This document shows, piece by piece, positions 2,373 through 50,500 of a stretch of 64,000 nt of DNA. The notes under the pieces are model-generated. The model did not search any database and was not told the DNA's origin. It saw only the letters and a list, made by a program, of their open reading frames with translations. The position numbers and the translations under genes are program-made. The stretch is from Nannobrachium achirus (Eukaryota > Chordata > Actinopteri > Myctophiformes > Myctophidae), in the NCBI GenBank assembly GCA_963921795.1, contig OY997645.1, positions 34,866,582-34,930,581 on the forward strand. Reading direction: 5' to 3'. The number at the start of each line of letters is the position of its first letter. Positions within the stretch are counted from its first letter, which is position 1.

Positions 2373-5300
2373 GTAAGTCTATTTTTTTTGTAAAAAAATA
2401 ATTCATGTAAGAGTAAGGTTTTAACACATTGCTTATGATAACATTAAGCTCAGCCCTTAGACATAATTTATTTTAATTGGAAGCATTAATTTATGTGGGT
2501 GACATTATGTTACAGTCTGTTACAGTTCTGTTTAATATTCACATGCACCAGAACAAATTTGTCTAATCCAGAAGCACATCCTACAGAAATAGGAATTACC
2601 TTACACTGTACCCATCAGTCATCCAAAATATCTAAATCAAAACCAAAACCTTTGTTTCTTTTTTAGCTTGAAATAACACCACAGTTGCACTTTTCCCCAA
2701 TAACAATGATTTTCTGGAGCTTGCAGAGGAGTTTGAAGCAATACATTGTTCATTGAATTGGGTCACAATGGAAGCAAAGGCATATAAAAGCTTAATGCTC
2801 TCATTTGGCGCCTCAACAAAGACAGGAAACAATCTGAGTAAATGGGGCTACACTACAATAGTTATGCCATATTATTTGCTATGTTTTTATTGGTGAAAAG
2901 GCTACGCAGTTGCTTATTCACAGCATGTTGCTTGTTGGGATAAAAGCATCAAGGCTGGTCTTCTTTTTTTTTTTTACTTGATTTGTATTTGCAGTTCGTT
3001 ACATGGACAAAACATTTGCAGGGTCAACATCATTACATCGTTTTAGTGATCACATTTTAATCCATGTCAGCTATTCATTTTGTTGGGTTATGTTTTCAGT
3101 CCATTTCTCCCATTTCTCAAGGAACAGTTCTTCTTGTATCCTGAGTTTGTGTGTAAATCTCTCCATCACATATATTTCCTCCACAATGCACAGCTTCTGC
3201 TCAAAAGTTGGAGGGTCACTTTTATACCACAGTCTTGTTATTGCTTTTTTGCTGGCTGCCAGCAGCAAGGCAGGTGTTTCCTTTGTTAAGACAATGTTGT
3301 GAGCGGGGGCACGGTAGCACAGTGGTTAGCGCTTCGCCTCACAGCTAGAAGGTCCTGGGTTCGATTCCCGCCGGGGGACGCTGTGGGTGCTGGTGGCGTA
3401 TTCCTCCCTCTGCGTCATCAGCGCCCACACCCTAGGTGGGGTTGGCGATAGGGCCTTTCTGTGTGGAGTTTGCATGTTCTCCCCGTGTCTCCTAGGGTTG
3501 ATACCCTCACAAAAACATGCAGTAATCCTGGTCTCAATAATACCTCCCCCTGGCCAGCCAGGGCGCCTGATGGAGGGGAAAGGAACTGGTTGGAATAACG
3601 TGTTCCTTCCACGCGCTACGTCCAAACCAGGTAAATTTCCACTGTCAGGTGAAAAGAAGCAACTTGGACTCCTCATGTATAGAAGGAAGCATGAGGTCAG
3701 TCCGTTGTCTCCCCAGGCGCAACAGAGGGAGAGCAGAGCCCAGGATTACATAGGCAATTGGCACTGGGTGAAAATGTTCATGTTGTGGCATGTTCATTTA
3801 CTGTGTACAAGCATCATATAATGTATATACTGTAACAGGCTCGGGCTAGTTGAGAGAGCTTTGTGGGTGCAGTGACACAAACACAGGATTTCAAGTCCCC
3901 TCTGGCAAGTGGCCAGGGCATTTATTAACACAAAAAGTCACTCAGCAAAAGTCAACTCAAAGTCTCTGTCCCTCTCTGGGAAATAAACACTTCTCTTTGT
4001 TTGGGGAGCACGCCTGCTCTCCTCACACTCCTCACACACTCTGGCCTCCCCACACTCTGAGGCCTTGATTTTCCCCTCAGCCAGGTGTGTGCTAGATCGG
4101 CATTGGTTGGAGCCAACGAGCTGGAATGTAGGTGGCCCCTATCACCATGCCCCTCACTCTGTCCCTGTCCCTCACCCCATTACACACCCCCCTCCCCAGT
4201 GTGCGCCTAGTCGGAGGGGCGAACGATGTCCAGAGGGCGTCCCTCCGGGACAGGGCATCCGCATTCCCATGTTTGGCTCCAGACCTGTGAATGACAGAAA
4301 AGTCAAAATCCTGCAGAGTGAGAAACCATCTAGCTACTCTGGCATTTGTGTCCTTTTTCTTGGTCATCCATACGAGGGGAGCATGGTCAGTTACCAGCGT
4401 GAACCTGCGACCCATGAGGTAGTATTGGAGCTGTTCTAGTGCCCACTTAATGGCAAGACCTTCTTTTTCCACAGTGGCAAATGCCTTTTCCCGGGCATCC
4501 AGTTTCCTGCTGACATAAAGTATGGGATGCTCCTCACCTTGAAACTCCTGTGCCAGTACTGCCCCGACCCCCACCTCCGAGGCATCCGTTTGCACAATAA
4601 ATTCTTTGCTAAAGTCCGGGGTCATCAGGACTGGCTGCGTACAGAGGGCATCTTTCAGGCGTTGAAAGGCACTTTCTATTTCCTCCGTCCAAGTCACCAT
4701 GTGAGGCCGAGATTTCTTCGTCAGGTCTGACAGGGGGGCAGCTATTGTGGAGTAATTGGAAATAAAGCGAGAATAATAAGAAGCAAGACCCAAGAAACTT
4801 TTTACCTGGGCCTTGTTGACAGGTCGGGGCCACTCTTGGATCGCCTGGACTTTGCGTTCCTGTGGTTTCACATTTCCTCGTCCTATTGTGAAACCAAGGT
4901 ACTCTGACTCTTCAAGACCCAGCTTACACTTTTTGGGGTTGGCTGTTAGGCCGGCCTGACGAAGAGCCTCCACCACTGCTCCGAGCCGCAGGAGATGGTC
5001 CTCCCAGGTCATGCTCTGTATAACGACATCATCCAAATATGCAGCAGCATACTCACGGTGGGGTTTCAGAACTCTGTCCATCAGTCTCTGGAACGTGGCA
5101 GGGGCCCCGTGCAGACCAAAAGGCAGAACAGTGTAATGGTAGAGTCCAGAGGGTGCTGTGAACGCTGTCTTCTCCTTCGAGTCCGCTGCCAGGGGCACCT
5201 GCCAGTATCCCTTGGTGAGGTCCAGAGTGCTGATGTACCGGGCATCTCCAAGGCGGTCAATGAGTTCATCCACCCTGGGCATAGGATATGCATCAAATTT

Positions 5301-8300
5301 TGAAACGTCATTCAATTTCCTAAAATCATTGCAAAACCTTTTCGTTGAGTCAGGCTTGGGTACCAGGACCACTGGGCTTGCCCATTCACTGAACGACTCC
5401 TCGATCACGCCCAATTTCAACATCTTTTGGACCTCCTCCTCAATAATGGCTCGTCTGGCTTCTGGGATCCTGTAGGGTCTGATTTTTACCTTTTTGCCGG
5501 GTTCTGTCCAGATGTGATGCTGTATGACCTTAGTACGGCCAGGTTTAGGTGAGAAGACATCTGTGTTCTGTTGCACCAACTCTTTCATTTGTTGGGTCTG
5601 AATTTTGGACAGCCCTGGGCCATAGGTCACCTCTTCGACTGCATTTCCTGTAGGGGGAGACAAGGGCACTTGCGGGGACACAGATATTAAAGCCTCCCTA
5701 GAATGCCATCTCTTCAACAAATTCACATGGTAAATTTGTGCCTTTTTCCGACGGCCTGGCTGGCTGACTTTATAATTTACGGGTCCCACCTTTTCTATGA
5801 CCTCATAGGGCCCTTTCCAGGTGGCTAGAAACTTATGCTCAGTTGTGGGTATCAACACCAGCACTTTATCGCCCACCTGGAATTCTCTGGTTTGCGCCCC
5901 TCTGTTGTAGGCCTTCCTCTATGCCTCTTGCGCCTGAGCCATGTGTTCCCTCACTATCGGCCATAACACCTTCATGCGCTCCCTCAGTACCTCTACATGT
6001 TCCACCAGGCTGCGGTGGGGGCTTGGTTGCTCCTCCCAGGCCTCCTTAGCAATGTCCAACAGTCCACGAGGTTGTCTCCCATACAGGAGCTCAAAGGGGC
6101 TGAATCCTGTGGAGGCCTGTGGGACTTCTCTGATCGAAAACATTAGTAAGGGCAACAGCTGGTCCCAGTTCTTGCCATCTTTATCCATAACCTTCTTTAA
6201 CATGCCTTTTAAAGATTTTATAAACCTCTCAGAGAGGCCATCAGACTGGGGATGAAAGACAGAAGTACGGAGTTGTTTTACCTGCAGCAGCTGGCACAGA
6301 TGTTTCATGATATTCGACATGAACGGAGTCCCTTGGTCTGTCAAAATTTCCTTGGGAATTCCCACTCGACTGAACAGCTGTAACAGTTCACGAGCAATCC
6401 CTTTTGCCACCATCGTTCTCAATGGGATGGCCTCTGGATACCTGGTGGCATAATCGACAACAACCAAAATGTACCTATAGCCCTTTGCGGATTTCACCAG
6501 GGGCCCCACCAGGTCCATACCAATCCTTTCAAAGGGAACATCAATAATGGGGAGAGGAATCAAGGGATTTCGAAAATGGGGTTTTGGTGCCACCATCTGG
6601 CATTCAGGGCAAGTGCGGCAGTAGTCTTCCACTGCTCTTACCATACCAGGCCAATGGAACCTCTTTGAAATCAGGACATGACTGTGAGCTAGATGCAGGA
6701 CATTGGAAACATACGATCTGGGCACCACCAACAGTTCTCGGACTTGACCGTCAACCTGGCGAGCATAATACAGCAGTTTATTTTTTATCTTAAACCGGGG
6801 AAACACCAGTTCACTCACCCCGGGGGCTTTCTGCCCCTCGATCTCCGTGACATTGCTCCTGGCAGGTATCAGGTTTGGGTCTTCTAGCTGTGCCGTACCA
6901 AATTGTCCCCTGAGACTGAGGCAACAGCAACTCTCCACCCTCTGCCTCATCTGAGCTATTACTAGCTGGGAAGGCCTGGAAAGGGTTCTCTACATCATCA
7001 TCGGACGTCGGCTCCGCTGAGCTGCTTTCATCTCCCCCTGGGGCGGCACAGCCGAGCTTGGACTGGTCCTTTGGGGAAGAAGGCTGAGGGGAGGTTAACT
7101 TAGGTCTACAGTTTAATTTGACTGAGCAATTTTGTTTTTTCCCACTCACCTTCTTCCTCTCTCTCAGCTTAGAGTACAAGGGGCAGTCACGGCCCAGTAG
7201 GACTGGCACAGGAAGATTGGCGACCACACCTACTTGCATGGTGCAGCGGCCCCGTCCTGTGGTGAGATGTATGACATTGGTTGGATAATGTTTAGTATCA
7301 CCATGCACACAGGAGACAGGCACTAACTTCCCAGGACGCTGACGCTCCAATAGCTGAGGTTGGATGAGGGACACCACGCTCCCGGAGTCCACCAGGGCCT
7401 GTGTCATTTTACCATTTATCTGGACTGGAACCAAGGGAAGAGAATTTTCATCCTTCACCCAACAGGAGTAATTCATATGGCAAGGCTTCCCGGAGGACAC
7501 TTCAGTGGGCATCTCTTCATCCCTGGAGGGGCAATCCCAGGCGAGATGACCGAGCTCTCCACATTCGAAGCACCTCCTTCTGTCCGCCCCAAATGGTTGG
7601 CGTCTCCGTCGTACCACTTCTTCTCCTTGCGACGACCCCCTTCCCTCAGGGGCGGGCTTCTCTGTTGTTCTCTTTGGCCGGGTGATTTCGGGCCGGTCCA
7701 TCCTTCCCGCTTTCAACACACCTGCTGTGACTTGATGACTTTCCACCAGGTTCAGAAGTTCATCAGTACTCATAGGATTTCCATGGCTCACCATTTTCCT
7801 TGCGTCGTAGGGCAGCGCTCTGATGAACTTATCCATGACCACCCTCTCCAGGACGCTCAGCTTCTCTGCTTCATGAGTGAGCCAGGCCCTGGCCAGCCTG
7901 GAGAGGTCATACAGTTGGGCTCTGGGCGACGCCTCTGCGTTGTATTTCCACTCATAAAACCTCTGGGCTGGCCCGGTGAGGAATGGACCTACCAGCTCTG
8001 ACCACTCAGTTCCTGGCCAGCCCTCCCGCATAGCAGTGCGCTCAAAAGACACAAGATAGGCCTCCACATCATCACTGTCCGTCATCTTCGGCAGGAACCG
8101 ACTGGGGCTAGGCTGGTTAGGCTGGTGGGGGCCAGGCTGAGAAGGTCTCCCTGCTACTGCGGTCGCCATTTTCTGGACCTCAGCATGGAGGAGGCCATTT
8201 TGCCTTTGTTGTTCAGCCAGCATTTCCCGTGACAAAGCTTGCTGCTCTAGAGAGATCCTCACCAACTCATGCAATACCGTATCCATTCTGTCGATATTGT

Positions 8301-11300
8301 GCTGTCACTACACCTGCTCTCTACCCGGATTCTCCACCAGTGTAACAGGCTCGGGCTAGTTGAGAGAGCTTTGTGGGTGCAGTGACACAAACACAGGATT
8401 TCAAGTCCCCTCTGGCAAGTGGCCACTGGCCAGGGCATTTATTAACACAAAAAGTCACTCAGCAAAAGTCAACTCAAAGTCTCTGTCCCTCTCTGGGAAA
8501 TAAACACTTCTCTTTGTTTGGGGAGCACGCCTGCTCTCCTCACACTCCTCACACACTCTGGCCTCCCCACACTCTGAGGCCTTGATTTTCCCCTCAGCCA
8601 GGTGTGTGCTAGATCGGCATTGGTTGGAGCCAACGAGCTGGAATGTAGGTGGCCCCTATCACCATGCCCCTCACTCTGTCCCTGTCCCTCACCCCATTAC
8701 AATACATTATTAAGAAGTTCAACTATATGGCTCAAAGAATGGTTAGAGAATTTCAATTCTGTTAAGCCCAAAATGTACTTATGATGATCGACATAAATTA
8801 ATTAAATTAAGTTTACTGAGATTAGAGTTGCTCTGGAATACCACAGAAGAACATTTTAAAAGCATTTAAAACTTTGTGAAAGTAGTGTTATCCTAAATAA
8901 TAATACTTAATATTACTGTAACAATCTCTGTATTGGTGGGAAAACCCCAATTATTCCTTTTTTTTGTTTGTTTTAAGTTTGACTCTCTTCCCCTGAATTG
9001 GTATTATATGAAATCCATACATTATTATCAACCTTCAGCAACATTTCTTTTGAATTAAAGTAAAGCCAAACACCCTCTATTCAGTTCATGTTGATATAGA
9101 CTTTTTTTTAAATCGGATCAAAACTGAAATGTGCTCTGAAAAGAAAATCCCCAGAGCACTGTGTCCCATAATTAGTGTAAACCTCTCCCAAGGCATTTAA
9201 CAGAATATGTGCTTTGGTTAAATAATAGTTTCCCAGAAAATTAGCTGTTTTTCTTTTAAGATCTGGAATTACACTTAGGTTTGTGAAGAATTAGAGTTAT
9301 TAGGGAGAATTATCCCTATAGACTTTATCTGTTCTGAGATATAATTATATTTGAAAGACTAGGGGCCTAAGGGGATATAATATCAGTCACTATAAGTATA
9401 ATTGATAAATATAACCAGTTGATAATGATGGCATTAAATTTAGATGTAGAGGTTATTCAACATTGTTTATGGAAATGGAGGTTAATGGCCTTCTTAATTC
9501 CAGGGCTAAAACCTTTTAGCAAGATTGTTTACATTTAAGTAGAACTATTGTAGATGATATTTTTATTAGTAACATACTGTAAAAATACAGGAAGAACCCC
9601 AAATTTTGGCAAGCAGAGCTGCTTGCCAATCCCTGCTTTTCAAAGATAAGCATTTAGATGAGGCAGCCTTGATTAGGATCAAGCTTGCTATTCACCCAGT
9701 CGACAAAATCAGTAATGTAAATTGCCACTGAAGAGCATGATTGTAGAATGAGATATCGTCACCTTCTCTAACAAAATGAAAGGCATTAAAGTACTCATGA
9801 CTCGTACAGTGAATTAGAAACCTAGAAAAAGTGCTCCTCGTAGCACAGGTCTCCGCTAAATCAGGTAGGTTATTGTGGCCTCCTGGTGGCGTTATAATAG
9901 GCCAATGTGAAAAGGGTGGCATTTCTTCCTCTGCCTTTCATGGCAATCGGACAATGTGTTCATGATTTGAGGCATTTTATTCGAAAACAATATTTTTGCC
10001 AAATCAGCCTGCTGGTGGCGCTATAACAGGCCAATGTGAAAATGATGGCATTTCGTCCTCGGCCTAGTGGGAATGTCAGTCCAAAGTTTCACGGCAATCG
10101 CATGCTGTGTTCATGATTTGAGGCATTTTATTCAAAACAAGCCACTTGTGCAAACTTCAGTTGGCAACTGTAGCCATTCAGGGTGGAATATGAAAAATCA
10201 AACCGATATACTGTATACCGATTTGCGTGATGTGTGGACAAAATCTGAAAGAGTTATGTCAAAATGTGTTTTGTAAAAATCTGCCTGCTGGTGGTGCTAT
10301 AACAGGCCGATCTGAAAAACTGGGGCAGAGGTTCTGCTCTGGCATCCAGGGAGTGTGTGTGTGCACAGTTTCGCTGCGATCGGGCCAACTGTGCCGGATA
10401 TTTTGTTGCTCGCAGTCGGACACACGCACGCATAGGCGGACAGGGTGCCTTCGGCCTGGCGACGACGATTAATTGTTATGTATTGTCCGACTTAGCTTTG
10501 TTTGTGTTTGTTTATGTGCTAAAGAAGTGACTTTGAGAGCTTTTTCATCGTACAATGAAGGTCAATGAGATGGTATTTTAAATTGTTATAATTAATTTCT
10601 AATCAACTGCACCAATTCGACTGCTACATCATGACAAGGTAACTACTACACAACCTAAACCTCTACCAAAGAGTCTTATTGCTTTGAAGGCCGGGCCAGG
10701 TATCATTATTTCTTCATATATATATTTATATATGTATTTATTTTTATTTTATGCATCAAGCTCAAGCAGTGAGTCTTGGCTAATGGGGTCAGCTAACAAA
10801 GACATTGTGTGACAACACAATAAGCATGTAACCATGCACAACAGAATGCACCATTGCACCAATGTTCTCAATCTCATATATTACAGATGCTGTTTCTCTC
10901 ACCATCTGATGCTGACTTGGAACTATTTCATTTGTGGACGAAATGCCAATGTGTATCAATAGCAATACGCACTGAAAACACTGGCATCGTTCGACTAATT
11001 ATTTTCAAAATACAGAGTGACAAAATATTATTATATAGTTCTATTAATTGGTCATTGCAGATGTGTCAAGTTGGAACGCAAGACAGTAGAGCATTGTTTT
11101 GGTGCTAGTATCCAGTGAGCGCTAAGGATCATGCTAATGAGTCCACATGCCTTGCAGAGGCATGCATTTATAGTCAAGCAATGGGAGTAAGCATTTGGAA
11201 TCTGTTAAAACTTGATTACCTCTGGGCCTTGAATTATTGATGCAAAGCGGGGGTTTAAGGCTGCCTTCAACTCTCATTAGTCTTTACCAGAGTTGTCCGT

Positions 11301-47573: not shown

Positions 47574-50500
47574 GCGTGCGCGCGTGCGTGCGTGCGCGCG
47601 CGTGTACACGTTTGTGCCTCTGTGTCTGTACAGGCATCACTGAATGATGAGTTTATGATGAGTTTGATATGTGCTTCTTGCAGCCTTCCCAGACTACGAG
47701 TCCTGCTAAGCTGTTATGAACCCTCAGAGCCTGTGTGTCTAGGGGAAAAATACGGCTATGGGCTGAGCCAGGGGGGCTACAGTTACATCACAGGAGGTGG
47801 AGGGTGAGTTACATGGCTCAGCCACTCTGGGATTATATCAATGAAAGAGGGAGAGGGACTGCAAGGCTGGTGATGAAAAATTGCCCTGTGAATGAAGTTT
47901 CATTCATAATTGGCAGAACTAGATTAAGATGCATGCTCCAAAATTTAAATGTAACTGTCAGAATGTTAATGTCAAAGCAATATTGGACCCGATTTTCCAT
48001 GCAGGAAGTATTGCTGAATGTCTGTTTTCCTTTTAAGTGCGTCTGTAGGCTGCAGATTCTTTTCTGACTACCTTTGAGAGTAACATCAATTACTCTTGAC
48101 ATTTTACACCACTTCAGGTTTCCATTTTTATTAAAGCATTCTCCTGTGGAAAAAGGATACCCTTTCACTTTGAGTGACATGTACAGTATTTTCTGCCAGC
48201 CCGAAGATTGTATTCTCTGGCGTAATTACCTCCCTTCTTTACGAGATGCTCCGCATCAACATTCATCCTTGTGCAAAACTGCACAGTATTACTAGTCTGA
48301 AACAACGCTTTCCTCTCAGCTTGACTCCTATCATGTCACTCTCACTTTCTCATTTTGTTCCCTCCTCAGTTGTTCCCTGAAAATCAATAGCCAATAAAAG
48401 CAATATAGAAGAATATACAGCACAATACGTACAGTATGACAGTGGTTCTCAAACTCTTTGTGCCAAAGGCACACCAATGGGGACACTGGAAATAGGGACA
48501 GCAGGTTGAAAGTGCTTAAAGAAAATCTATATATAGTTTGGGGTTTAGAATTGGCCTCTGTATTGGAAAATATACTCAAATTGTAAATAAAAAAAAATAT
48601 TCATAACCTTTCATATAGTTGTATATATTGCACAAATAATGTGTGGTTGTCACACGATTCCCTGGACTTGTCTCATGGCACACCGTTTGGGAATCATCGC
48701 AGTATGACTAGGGCTGTCACGATATGACATTTTACATGACGATTAATTGTCACTCAAATAATTGGCGATTAACGATTTCATTGTCTATTCGTCGTTGATA
48801 ATTACATTTCTGTTTGGCTTTTAGGCTTTGAAGTTGCATATGGTAGATATGACACATGACCTAAATATACAAATACATTACTGACATATTTGACAACTTA
48901 GTACTTAAAAAATAACATCGATTGTGGAAATAGCCGATCTGCTATTTCCACTATTTCTGACATTTTTCAACATTCACGATTATGACGATTATGACAAAAT
49001 AATTGCGATAATGTCAAATAATCACGATTAGACGATTATGTAATAATTGTGACAGCCCTAAGTATGACGCACACAATACATACTGAGGGGCAGCAGTACT
49101 GTAGCTCAGGAGGTAAGAAGCAGCTCTCTGTGAGCCGGAAAGTTTCTGGTTCAATCCCTGGCCAAGGCCATGTGTGGAAGTGTCCTTGATCAAAACACGT
49201 TGTGTGCCTTGCATTGTGTCATCAACAAACAACAGTTTGTGAATGTGTACTACTGCATGAATATACTGTGTCATTTGTAGCGATGTATCTCTCTACCTTT
49301 GCAGTGTGTGAGAATGGGTAAATGTGTTGTATTGTAAAGCGCTTTGAATGGTGGGAAAGGCAGGAAAGACGCTATAGAAATACTCAATAACACAATAAAG
49401 TGCATCCCCAAAAATCGATGTAAAAAGAGCTGAATTAAAGAAGATATTGTTTTCGGGTCACCATGAAGCCTGCTCCCAAGACGACAATGAAAATTAAATC
49501 CCCTGACTTTTCATCTATATTTAAATGTTTAACCCATTTAGGCCTAGGATTATTGACTGCTTTAACTATTGAAAAATAGCAGATATACAAGCTCACAGCG
49601 CGGCACCGAGTGCCGCGCTGCGAGCTTGTAGATCTGCTATTTTTGAAAAATCATGATAATTCTTTGCAAGTCTTTGAATATATCTATTTAAAAGCGAACA
49701 TTTGTAACTCAAATATTTGCTTCAGGGTGGTCCCTGGAACAACATATTTTGAGATGGGGGTCCGTGGCCAGGTACCTGTAATTTTGGGGGTTCTTGACAT
49801 GAAAAAGTTTGAGAACAACATGATTTAGAAGAAGGATTTAGAAGTCGGGTCAAAGATCGGGTCAAAGATATTCAAAGACTTGCACACATTTTCACGGTTT
49901 TTCAAAAATAGCAGATCTACAAGCTCGCAGCGCGGCACTCGGTGCCGCGCTGTGAGCTTGTATATCTGCTATTTTTCAATAGTTAAAGCATAAAATAATG
50001 GTTAAAGTGGTTCAAATCTAACGCGACTCAGGCGTGTTCCAGGTATTTGAGAGTTTAATGTCCTTCTGCCTGTATTCTTGCAGCATGGTGTTCAGCAGGG
50101 AGGCGGCGGTCCGACTACTAAATAGTGGCTGTAAGTGCTATAGCAATGATGCTCCTGATGACATGGTGTTGGGAATGTGCCTCAATGCCCTTGGACTTCC
50201 TGTCACACACAGCCCCCTCTTTCACCAGGTTATTACGCCGCCAGTCTTCAGATCTGCACGCTGTCTGTGTCTATCTCTGTGGCATGCATGTCTGTTTCAT
50301 CCCTGTCAAGTTGACAAGACTAGAGTTGCCAGTGCTCAGTTTAAAACAATTGGTGTAAACGTTACAGAAGATAATATTCCTCCGTGAGTGTTTCTTTATA
50401 TAGCGCTGTTGTCTCACTGTGCAACACACCTGCTTGCGATTGATTGCAATTAAAACCTTTTTCTTATTTTACAGGCACGACCAGAGGATTATGCCAGAGA

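What the first reader, a model, noticed from the sequence alone, without database searches (positions are those of the whole stretch)
3831..8701. Ty3/gypsy element with integrase ahead of reverse transcriptase
On the minus strand the order is Gag, protease, integrase (DDE core at about 6513-6230), then GPY/F module, RT (YLDD) and RNase H, with nothing after. This copia-like order in a gypsy-type pol is the mark of Gmr1-like elements. Having a full-length copy with almost identical LTRs in a b3glct intron is unusual and makes it a good reference copy.
Basis: partly seen in the sequence, partly recalled or inferred. Interest (0 to 1): 0.75.

Follow-up and report, generated by a model that had tools for sequence, protein, structure and literature searches.

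The report
Defective Gmr1-like retrotransposon in a fish
This is a recently inserted but damaged copy of a known kind of fish jumping gene (Gmr1-like) that carries its integrase before its reverse transcriptase; the arrangement is real but was described about two decades ago.

Summary
On the minus strand at 3831-8701 lies an LTR element: 5' LTR, primer site, Gag (SCAN-like capsid, CCHC), protease, integrase, RT, RNase H, purine tract, 3' LTR, with a 4-bp target duplication. No integrase follows RNase H. The RT is gypsy-type and groups with an integrase-first cod protein; order and clade fit Gmr1-like elements. Three corrections. (1) The copy is not intact: against sister copies it lacks 102 bp of gag and 36 bp of the integrase zinc finger, has a frame break between protease and integrase, and an in-frame stop after the integrase core. 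(2) It lies about 8.6 kb before the first b3glct exon that I could recognise, so 'in a b3glct intron' is not shown. (3) It is not rare in kind: five internal-bearing copies of this family were found, and related integrase-first families are abundant in the same genome. The tree held one canonical gypsy (Ty3) and no copia, because those searches did not complete. Verdict: a new, small, recently active family of a known kind; low interest.

The parts
8341..8701 (-). 5' LTR, 361 bp, TGTAATGG...CTGTTACA
3831..4184 (-). 3' LTR, 354 bp
8702..8705 (-). target-site duplication GTAT, upstream copy
3827..3830 (-). target-site duplication GTAT, downstream copy
8322..8339 (-). probable primer-binding site, one base after the 5' LTR; resembles the complement of a tRNA-Ala 3' end with mismatches, by recall only
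   Evidence: sequence; tRNA assignment recalled, search unanswered
6811..8304 (-). ORF for Gag and protease (497 aa; its last part is out of the integrase frame)
7732..7965 (-). SCAN-like capsid domain of Gag
   Evidence: PF02023, 3.7e-11; solved SCAN domains, best 1.5e-06
7525..7575 (-). CCHC zinc knuckle
   Evidence: PF00098, 3e-05
7183..7440 (-). aspartic protease
   Evidence: PF00077, 5.4e-06
5919..6989 (-). ORF with integrase zinc finger (damaged) and D,D35E core; ends at an in-frame TAG at 5919-5921
6249..6536 (-). integrase catalytic core
   Evidence: PF00665, 2.2e-11
6585..6674 (-). remaining half of the integrase H2C2 zinc finger; 36 bp are missing at about 6672 relative to three sister copies
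7963..7969 (-). junction of a deletion in gag (102 bp against copy C20a), at a short direct repeat
4092..5918 (-). ORF with integrase C-terminal domain, RT and RNase H; its last 31 codons, stop included, lie in the 3' LTR
5709..5813 (-). integrase C-terminal domain
   Evidence: PF22938, 3.7e-14
4884..5363 (-). reverse transcriptase (YLDD)
   Evidence: PF00078, 2.2e-31
4305..4616 (-). RNase H
   Evidence: PF17917, 3.6e-37
4187..4197 (-). polypurine tract before the 3' LTR

Best explanation
A recently inserted, now defective copy of a small Gmr1-like Ty3/gypsy retrotransposon family. It works as other LTR retrotransposons do: host transcription from the LTR, Gag particle, tRNA-primed reverse transcription, integration by the element's D,D35E integrase with a 4-bp staggered cut. 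Shown by sequence: the anatomy, domain order, target duplication, near-identical LTRs and lesions. Inferred: the steps of the life cycle, that the integrase is made from the middle of one Gag-Pol protein, and that the copy was either made by proteins of an intact relative or lost function at or soon after insertion.
For: Domain order and strength; same order in the sister copies for the domains that they keep; integrase core upstream of RT in 24 of 26 distinct genomic places, the other two having lost the core, and downstream in 0 of 26 (places counted by me from the coordinates of 37 loci); of 245 listed protein hits, 100 match both the window's IN core and RT pieces, 99 of them with IN first; best solved relative of the RT is Ty3 (9.3e-95), where RT (565-1019) precedes IN (1063-1326); the RT tree places the window in a 24-row group (SH-aLRT 86) with a Gadus morhua protein that is itself integrase-first. 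LTRs without substitutions, and a 4-bp duplication in 5 of 5 insertions of the family where it reads without ambiguity. In all 10 pairs of the five copies the synonymous share of single changes is 0.41-0.64 against a neutral share of 0.26 (pairs not independent), so the source lineages were probably coding until recently.
Against: Ty3, on a very long branch, is the only canonical gypsy in the tree and no copia was included, so the tree does not by itself prove the clade; the window's own place rests on support of 85-86 in a quick search without bootstrap. One of 100 proteins (P0144, a fragmentary model) has RT before IN. The window against C20a gives only 9 synonymous to 13 nonsynonymous changes. 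Hits are the listed best 120 of 2238 and of 2277, so the order of the rest is not known. No transcription or transposition was measured.
Confidence: 0.93

Rival explanations
1. A canonical gypsy element whose integrase was moved ahead of RT by a local rearrangement in this copy.
For: Single copies of LTR elements are often rearranged (general knowledge).
Against: The same order is in sister copies and in related families of this genome and of other vertebrates.
Confidence: 0.01
2. A copia element with a gypsy-like look.
For: Pol order is that of Ty1/copia.
Against: RT matches RVT_1 and the gypsy-type RNase H models; no copia RT model (RVT_2) appears at E up to 1; best solved relative is Ty3. 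A tree against copia could not be made.
Confidence: 0.01
3. The copy was defective already when it was mobilised: it moved in trans, using proteins of an intact relative, and its lesions come from its template or from errors in its last reverse transcription.
For: LTRs without substitutions alongside two deletions, a frame break and a stop that were not seen in the sister copies holding those regions (gag 2 of 2, zinc finger 3 of 3, stop 3 of 3; frame 3 of 3); the gag deletion ends in a short direct repeat, as expected of template jumping. C20b also has an LTR pair without differences and several frame breaks.
Against: Lesions after insertion are not excluded; short indels may partly be assembly errors; an identical LTR pair can also arise by gene conversion.
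Confidence: 0.4

Closest known systems
Gmr1 (Gadus morhua) and Gmr1-like elements (Butler 2001; Goodwin and Poulter 2002: seen only as entries of reference lists)
   Same: Gypsy-type pol with order PR-IN-RT-RH (stated for Gmr1 in PMC2582038, passages seen; for Gmr1-like elements in PMC3587641, passages seen)
   Different: A separate family: the cod protein P0015, not shown to be Gmr1 itself, is 65% identical in RT-RNase H; this copy is broken
Unnamed relatives in icefishes (Pseudochaenichthys georgianus P0012, Champsocephalus gunnari P0121)
   Same: Closest named hits: P0012 75% over 76% of the RT ORF; P0121 47% over 82% of the Gag ORF and 81% in the IN core
   Different: P0012 was too short for the tree; element structure in those species not examined
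Gmr families of Tetraodontiformes (PMC11117352, passages seen)
   Same: Gmr clade in fish, young insertions; there gag and pol are fused in one ORF
   Different: Those are 6.1-6.5 kb with LTRs of 337-518 bp; here 4.87 kb with LTRs of 354/361 bp, and the last ORF runs 31 codons (stop included) into the 3' LTR
SCAN domain of vertebrate zinc-finger proteins
   Same: Gag matches it; its origin from Gmr1-like Gag is reported (PMC3424704, passages seen), and over half of frog Gmr elements carry it (PMC4131045, passages seen)
   Different: Here it is still part of a retrotransposon Gag
Ty3 of yeast
   Same: RT-RNase H homology over about 455 residues
   Different: In Ty3 integrase follows RNase H

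Membership tests
Gmr1-like Ty3/gypsy | Integrase upstream of RT in pol | tested here: met
Gmr1-like Ty3/gypsy | RT of the Ty3/gypsy type | tested here: met
   RVT_1 and gypsy-type RNase H models; Ty3 best solved relative
Gmr1-like Ty3/gypsy | RT groups with integrase-first elements to the exclusion of canonical gypsy | tested here: inconclusive
   Groups with a Gadus integrase-first protein, but Ty3 is the only canonical element in the tree
Gmr1-like Ty3/gypsy | Gag and pol in one ORF | tested here: inconclusive
   Broken in this copy. In C20a, C20b and C1 the PR-IN linker and IN share one frame, though these copies have breaks elsewhere; open frames up to 1564 aa in related families of the genome
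Gmr1-like Ty3/gypsy | SCAN-like Gag (reported for over half of frog Gmr elements, so common but not universal) | tested here: met
Ty1/copia | Copia-type RT (RVT_2) | tested here: not met
   No RVT_2 match at E up to 1; no copia row could be put in the tree
Autonomous LTR retrotransposon | Intact gag-pol | tested here: not met

The most novel reading that the evidence does not exclude
This small family persists mainly as defective copies mobilised in trans by the abundant related Gmr1-like families of the same genome, and some Gmr1-like units (chromosome C22 array) multiply without their own integrase core while keeping an open frame.
Probability: 0.12. Interest if true: 0.4.

Novelty: new member of a known kind. 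Interest (0 to 1): 0.17.

Why it matters
It adds a SCAN-bearing, integrase-first gypsy family to those known in fish and corrects the claim that this copy is an intact reference. The general facts (order, clade, SCAN-like Gag) are already in print.

Tried and rejected
Rejected: local rearrangement (order shared by sister copies and other families); copia membership; an integrase downstream of RT (0 of 26 places); a longer 5' LTR as a systematic feature (the 7-bp and 8-bp extras of two copies differ in place and letters, so they look like independent slippage). Led nowhere: copia, gypsy and tRNA-primer searches of the own genome, never answered; the papers of Goodwin and Poulter 2002 and Emerson and Thomas 2011 are not held; ARAGORN found no tRNA in the window. 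Literature searches. I make no claim that this family is absent from print, and I searched no repeat library. No integrase tree was built.

Full report
What is there. The minus strand of 3831-8701 holds an LTR retrotransposon of 4,871 bp. Two direct repeats, 8341-8701 (361 bp) and 3831-4184 (354 bp), begin TG and end CA; aligned, they show 0 substitutions in 354 bases and one 7-bp indel. GTAT flanks both ends. A probable primer site lies one base inside the 5' LTR and a purine tract just before the 3' LTR. Three ORFs, 8304-6811, 6989-5919 and 5918-4092, carry in order SCAN-like capsid, CCHC, protease, integrase zinc finger and core, integrase C-terminal domain, RT and RNase H.

The order. Integrase stands before RT and nothing follows RNase H. 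It is not a quirk of this copy. tblastn of separate pieces shows the same order in sister copies C20a and C20b and, from the end of the SCAN-like region on, in C1; also in L067 and L068 of other families; C10 has lost protease and integrase. Over the 37 loci examined, which are 26 distinct places of the genome by my count from their coordinates, an integrase core lies upstream of RT in 24 and downstream in none; the two without it are the deleted copy on C10 and the C22 array. Of the 245 proteins listed match both pieces, 99 with integrase first; the exception is a fragmentary model, P0144. Ten relatives scanned with Pfam, eight from named vertebrates and one of these from cod, are all integrase-first. 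In Ty3 the order is the reverse.

Clade. The RT matches RVT_1 and gypsy-type RNase H, not the copia model, and its best solved relative is Ty3. In a quick tree of 114 rows the window falls in a 24-row group, SH-aLRT 86, with the cod protein P0015 and with other families of its own genome. Of the 120 hits only those aligned over more than 400 residues were used, with nine own-genome loci and Ty3; P0012 (Pseudochaenichthys, 75% over 76% of the query), the closest named relative, was thereby dropped. P0015 is a cod protein of the right kind; I did not show that it is Gmr1 itself. Ty3 was the only canonical element and no copia was included, because the genome searches for them did not complete.

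State of this copy. Outside indels the sister copies are about 96-99.8% identical to the window, piece by piece. Against them the window copy lacks 102 bp of gag (measured against C20a; C20b agrees within a base) and 36 bp of the integrase zinc finger (C20a, C20b, C1). The latter leaves only half of the H2C2 profile (29-58 of 59). Protease and integrase are in different frames, while in C20a, C20b and C1 the PR-IN linker and integrase share one frame. The in-frame TAG at 5919-5921 is absent from the three sisters that hold the region (C20a, C20b, C1). So it is complete by its ends, but not an intact element. C20b, C20a, C1 and C10 carry breaks of their own.

The family and its age. An RT-region DNA search found five places at 98-100% identity: window, C20a, C20b, C1, and C10 in two pieces. 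An LTR search gave 29 rows, 13 of them at 95% or more: two LTRs each for window, C20a, C20b and C10; two on C1 about 28 kb apart, probably one element interrupted by about 24 kb of later insertions; and single LTRs on C14 and C16 (two on C16, which share the same 3' flank and so look like one duplicated insertion). Counts are lower bounds, as the tool states. The 4-bp duplication is clear in window, C20a, C20b, C10 and one C16 LTR (5 of 5 that read without ambiguity); C14 and C1 lie in simple repeats, and the second C16 LTR is cut short. LTR pairs differ by 0 of 354, 0 of 354, 3 of 354, 4 of 348 and 4 of 333 substitutions for window, C20b, C20a, C10 and C1. Zero in 354 gives an upper 95% bound of about 0.0085; with an assumed rate of 3-10 in 10^9 per site and year (recalled) this is at most about 0.4-1.4 million years.

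Selection. Between window and C20b there are 25 synonymous and 18 nonsynonymous single-change codons; window against C20a gives 9 and 13; over all 10 pairs of the five copies the synonymous share is 0.41-0.64, against a neutral share of 0.26 (0-4 codons per pair with more than one change were set aside; pairs are not independent). The lineages were therefore probably under coding constraint until recently, and the lesions are late. Whether these came with the last reverse transcription, from the template, or after insertion is open.

Abundance of relatives. A protein search of the same genome scored 72 of 3,800 candidates; apart from the window and C1 rows, the other 70 are 62-66% identical, many with long open frames. 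Integrase-first gypsy elements are thus common in this genome (1.66 Gb, 564 contigs, unnamed; I infer a fish from the relatives).

Host site. tblastn with a recalled human B3GLCT found exons on the + strand from 17297 to 50579, and a Fringe-family search matched window 50085-50231 (coordinates converted). The first recognised exon starts at human residue 54, so one or more earlier exons are unplaced. The element may be in an early intron or upstream of the gene.

What is known. That Gmr1 or its kin have the copia order is stated in PMC2582038, PMC3587641 and PMC2774666; fish Gmr families with fused gag-pol are in PMC11117352; the SCAN domain's origin from Gmr1-like Gag is in PMC3424704; the Ty3 capsid paper PMC6525542 describes SCAN as a capsid fold likely taken from a retrotransposon. 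Of all these I saw passages only. I therefore rate this as a new member of a known kind with low interest.

Noticed in passing
L062 and L063 (own genome C22:26427500-26447300): At least four Gmr1-like units stand head to tail at 4,444-bp spacing, identical to two decimals in 200-base steps and joined through shared LTRs. Each lacks about 870 bp relative to L067 (most of the integrase zinc finger, the core, and the start of the C-terminal part), yet a frame of 1,174 aa stays open. Could be LTR-LTR recombination, concatemer insertion or an assembly artefact.
   Followed up: partly
own genome C1:88946305-88975089 (L069, L061): A copy of the same family seems to be split by about 24 kb of later insertions, with its LTRs about 28 kb apart.
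   Followed up: partly
own genome C16:9094531 and C16:8718858 (L071, L072): Two LTRs share the same 12-base 3' flank, which suggests a duplicated chromosome segment rather than two insertions.
   Followed up: no
own genome C18:17034984-17186035 (L042, L043, L045, L046): A cluster of LTR relatives at 78-82% identity; the two stretches examined (L064, L065) gave no coding match beyond the LTR-borne tail.
   Followed up: no
window 9878-10341: Short imperfect direct repeats (59 and 51 bp) beside the element.
   Followed up: no
window 17297-50642: b3glct exons on the + strand; the last ORF ends in KTEL.
   Followed up: partly
5' LTR of window and of C20a (L059): Two different short extra stretches, 7 and 8 bp, near the same place in the 5' LTR only; probably a slippage-prone site.
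   Followed up: no
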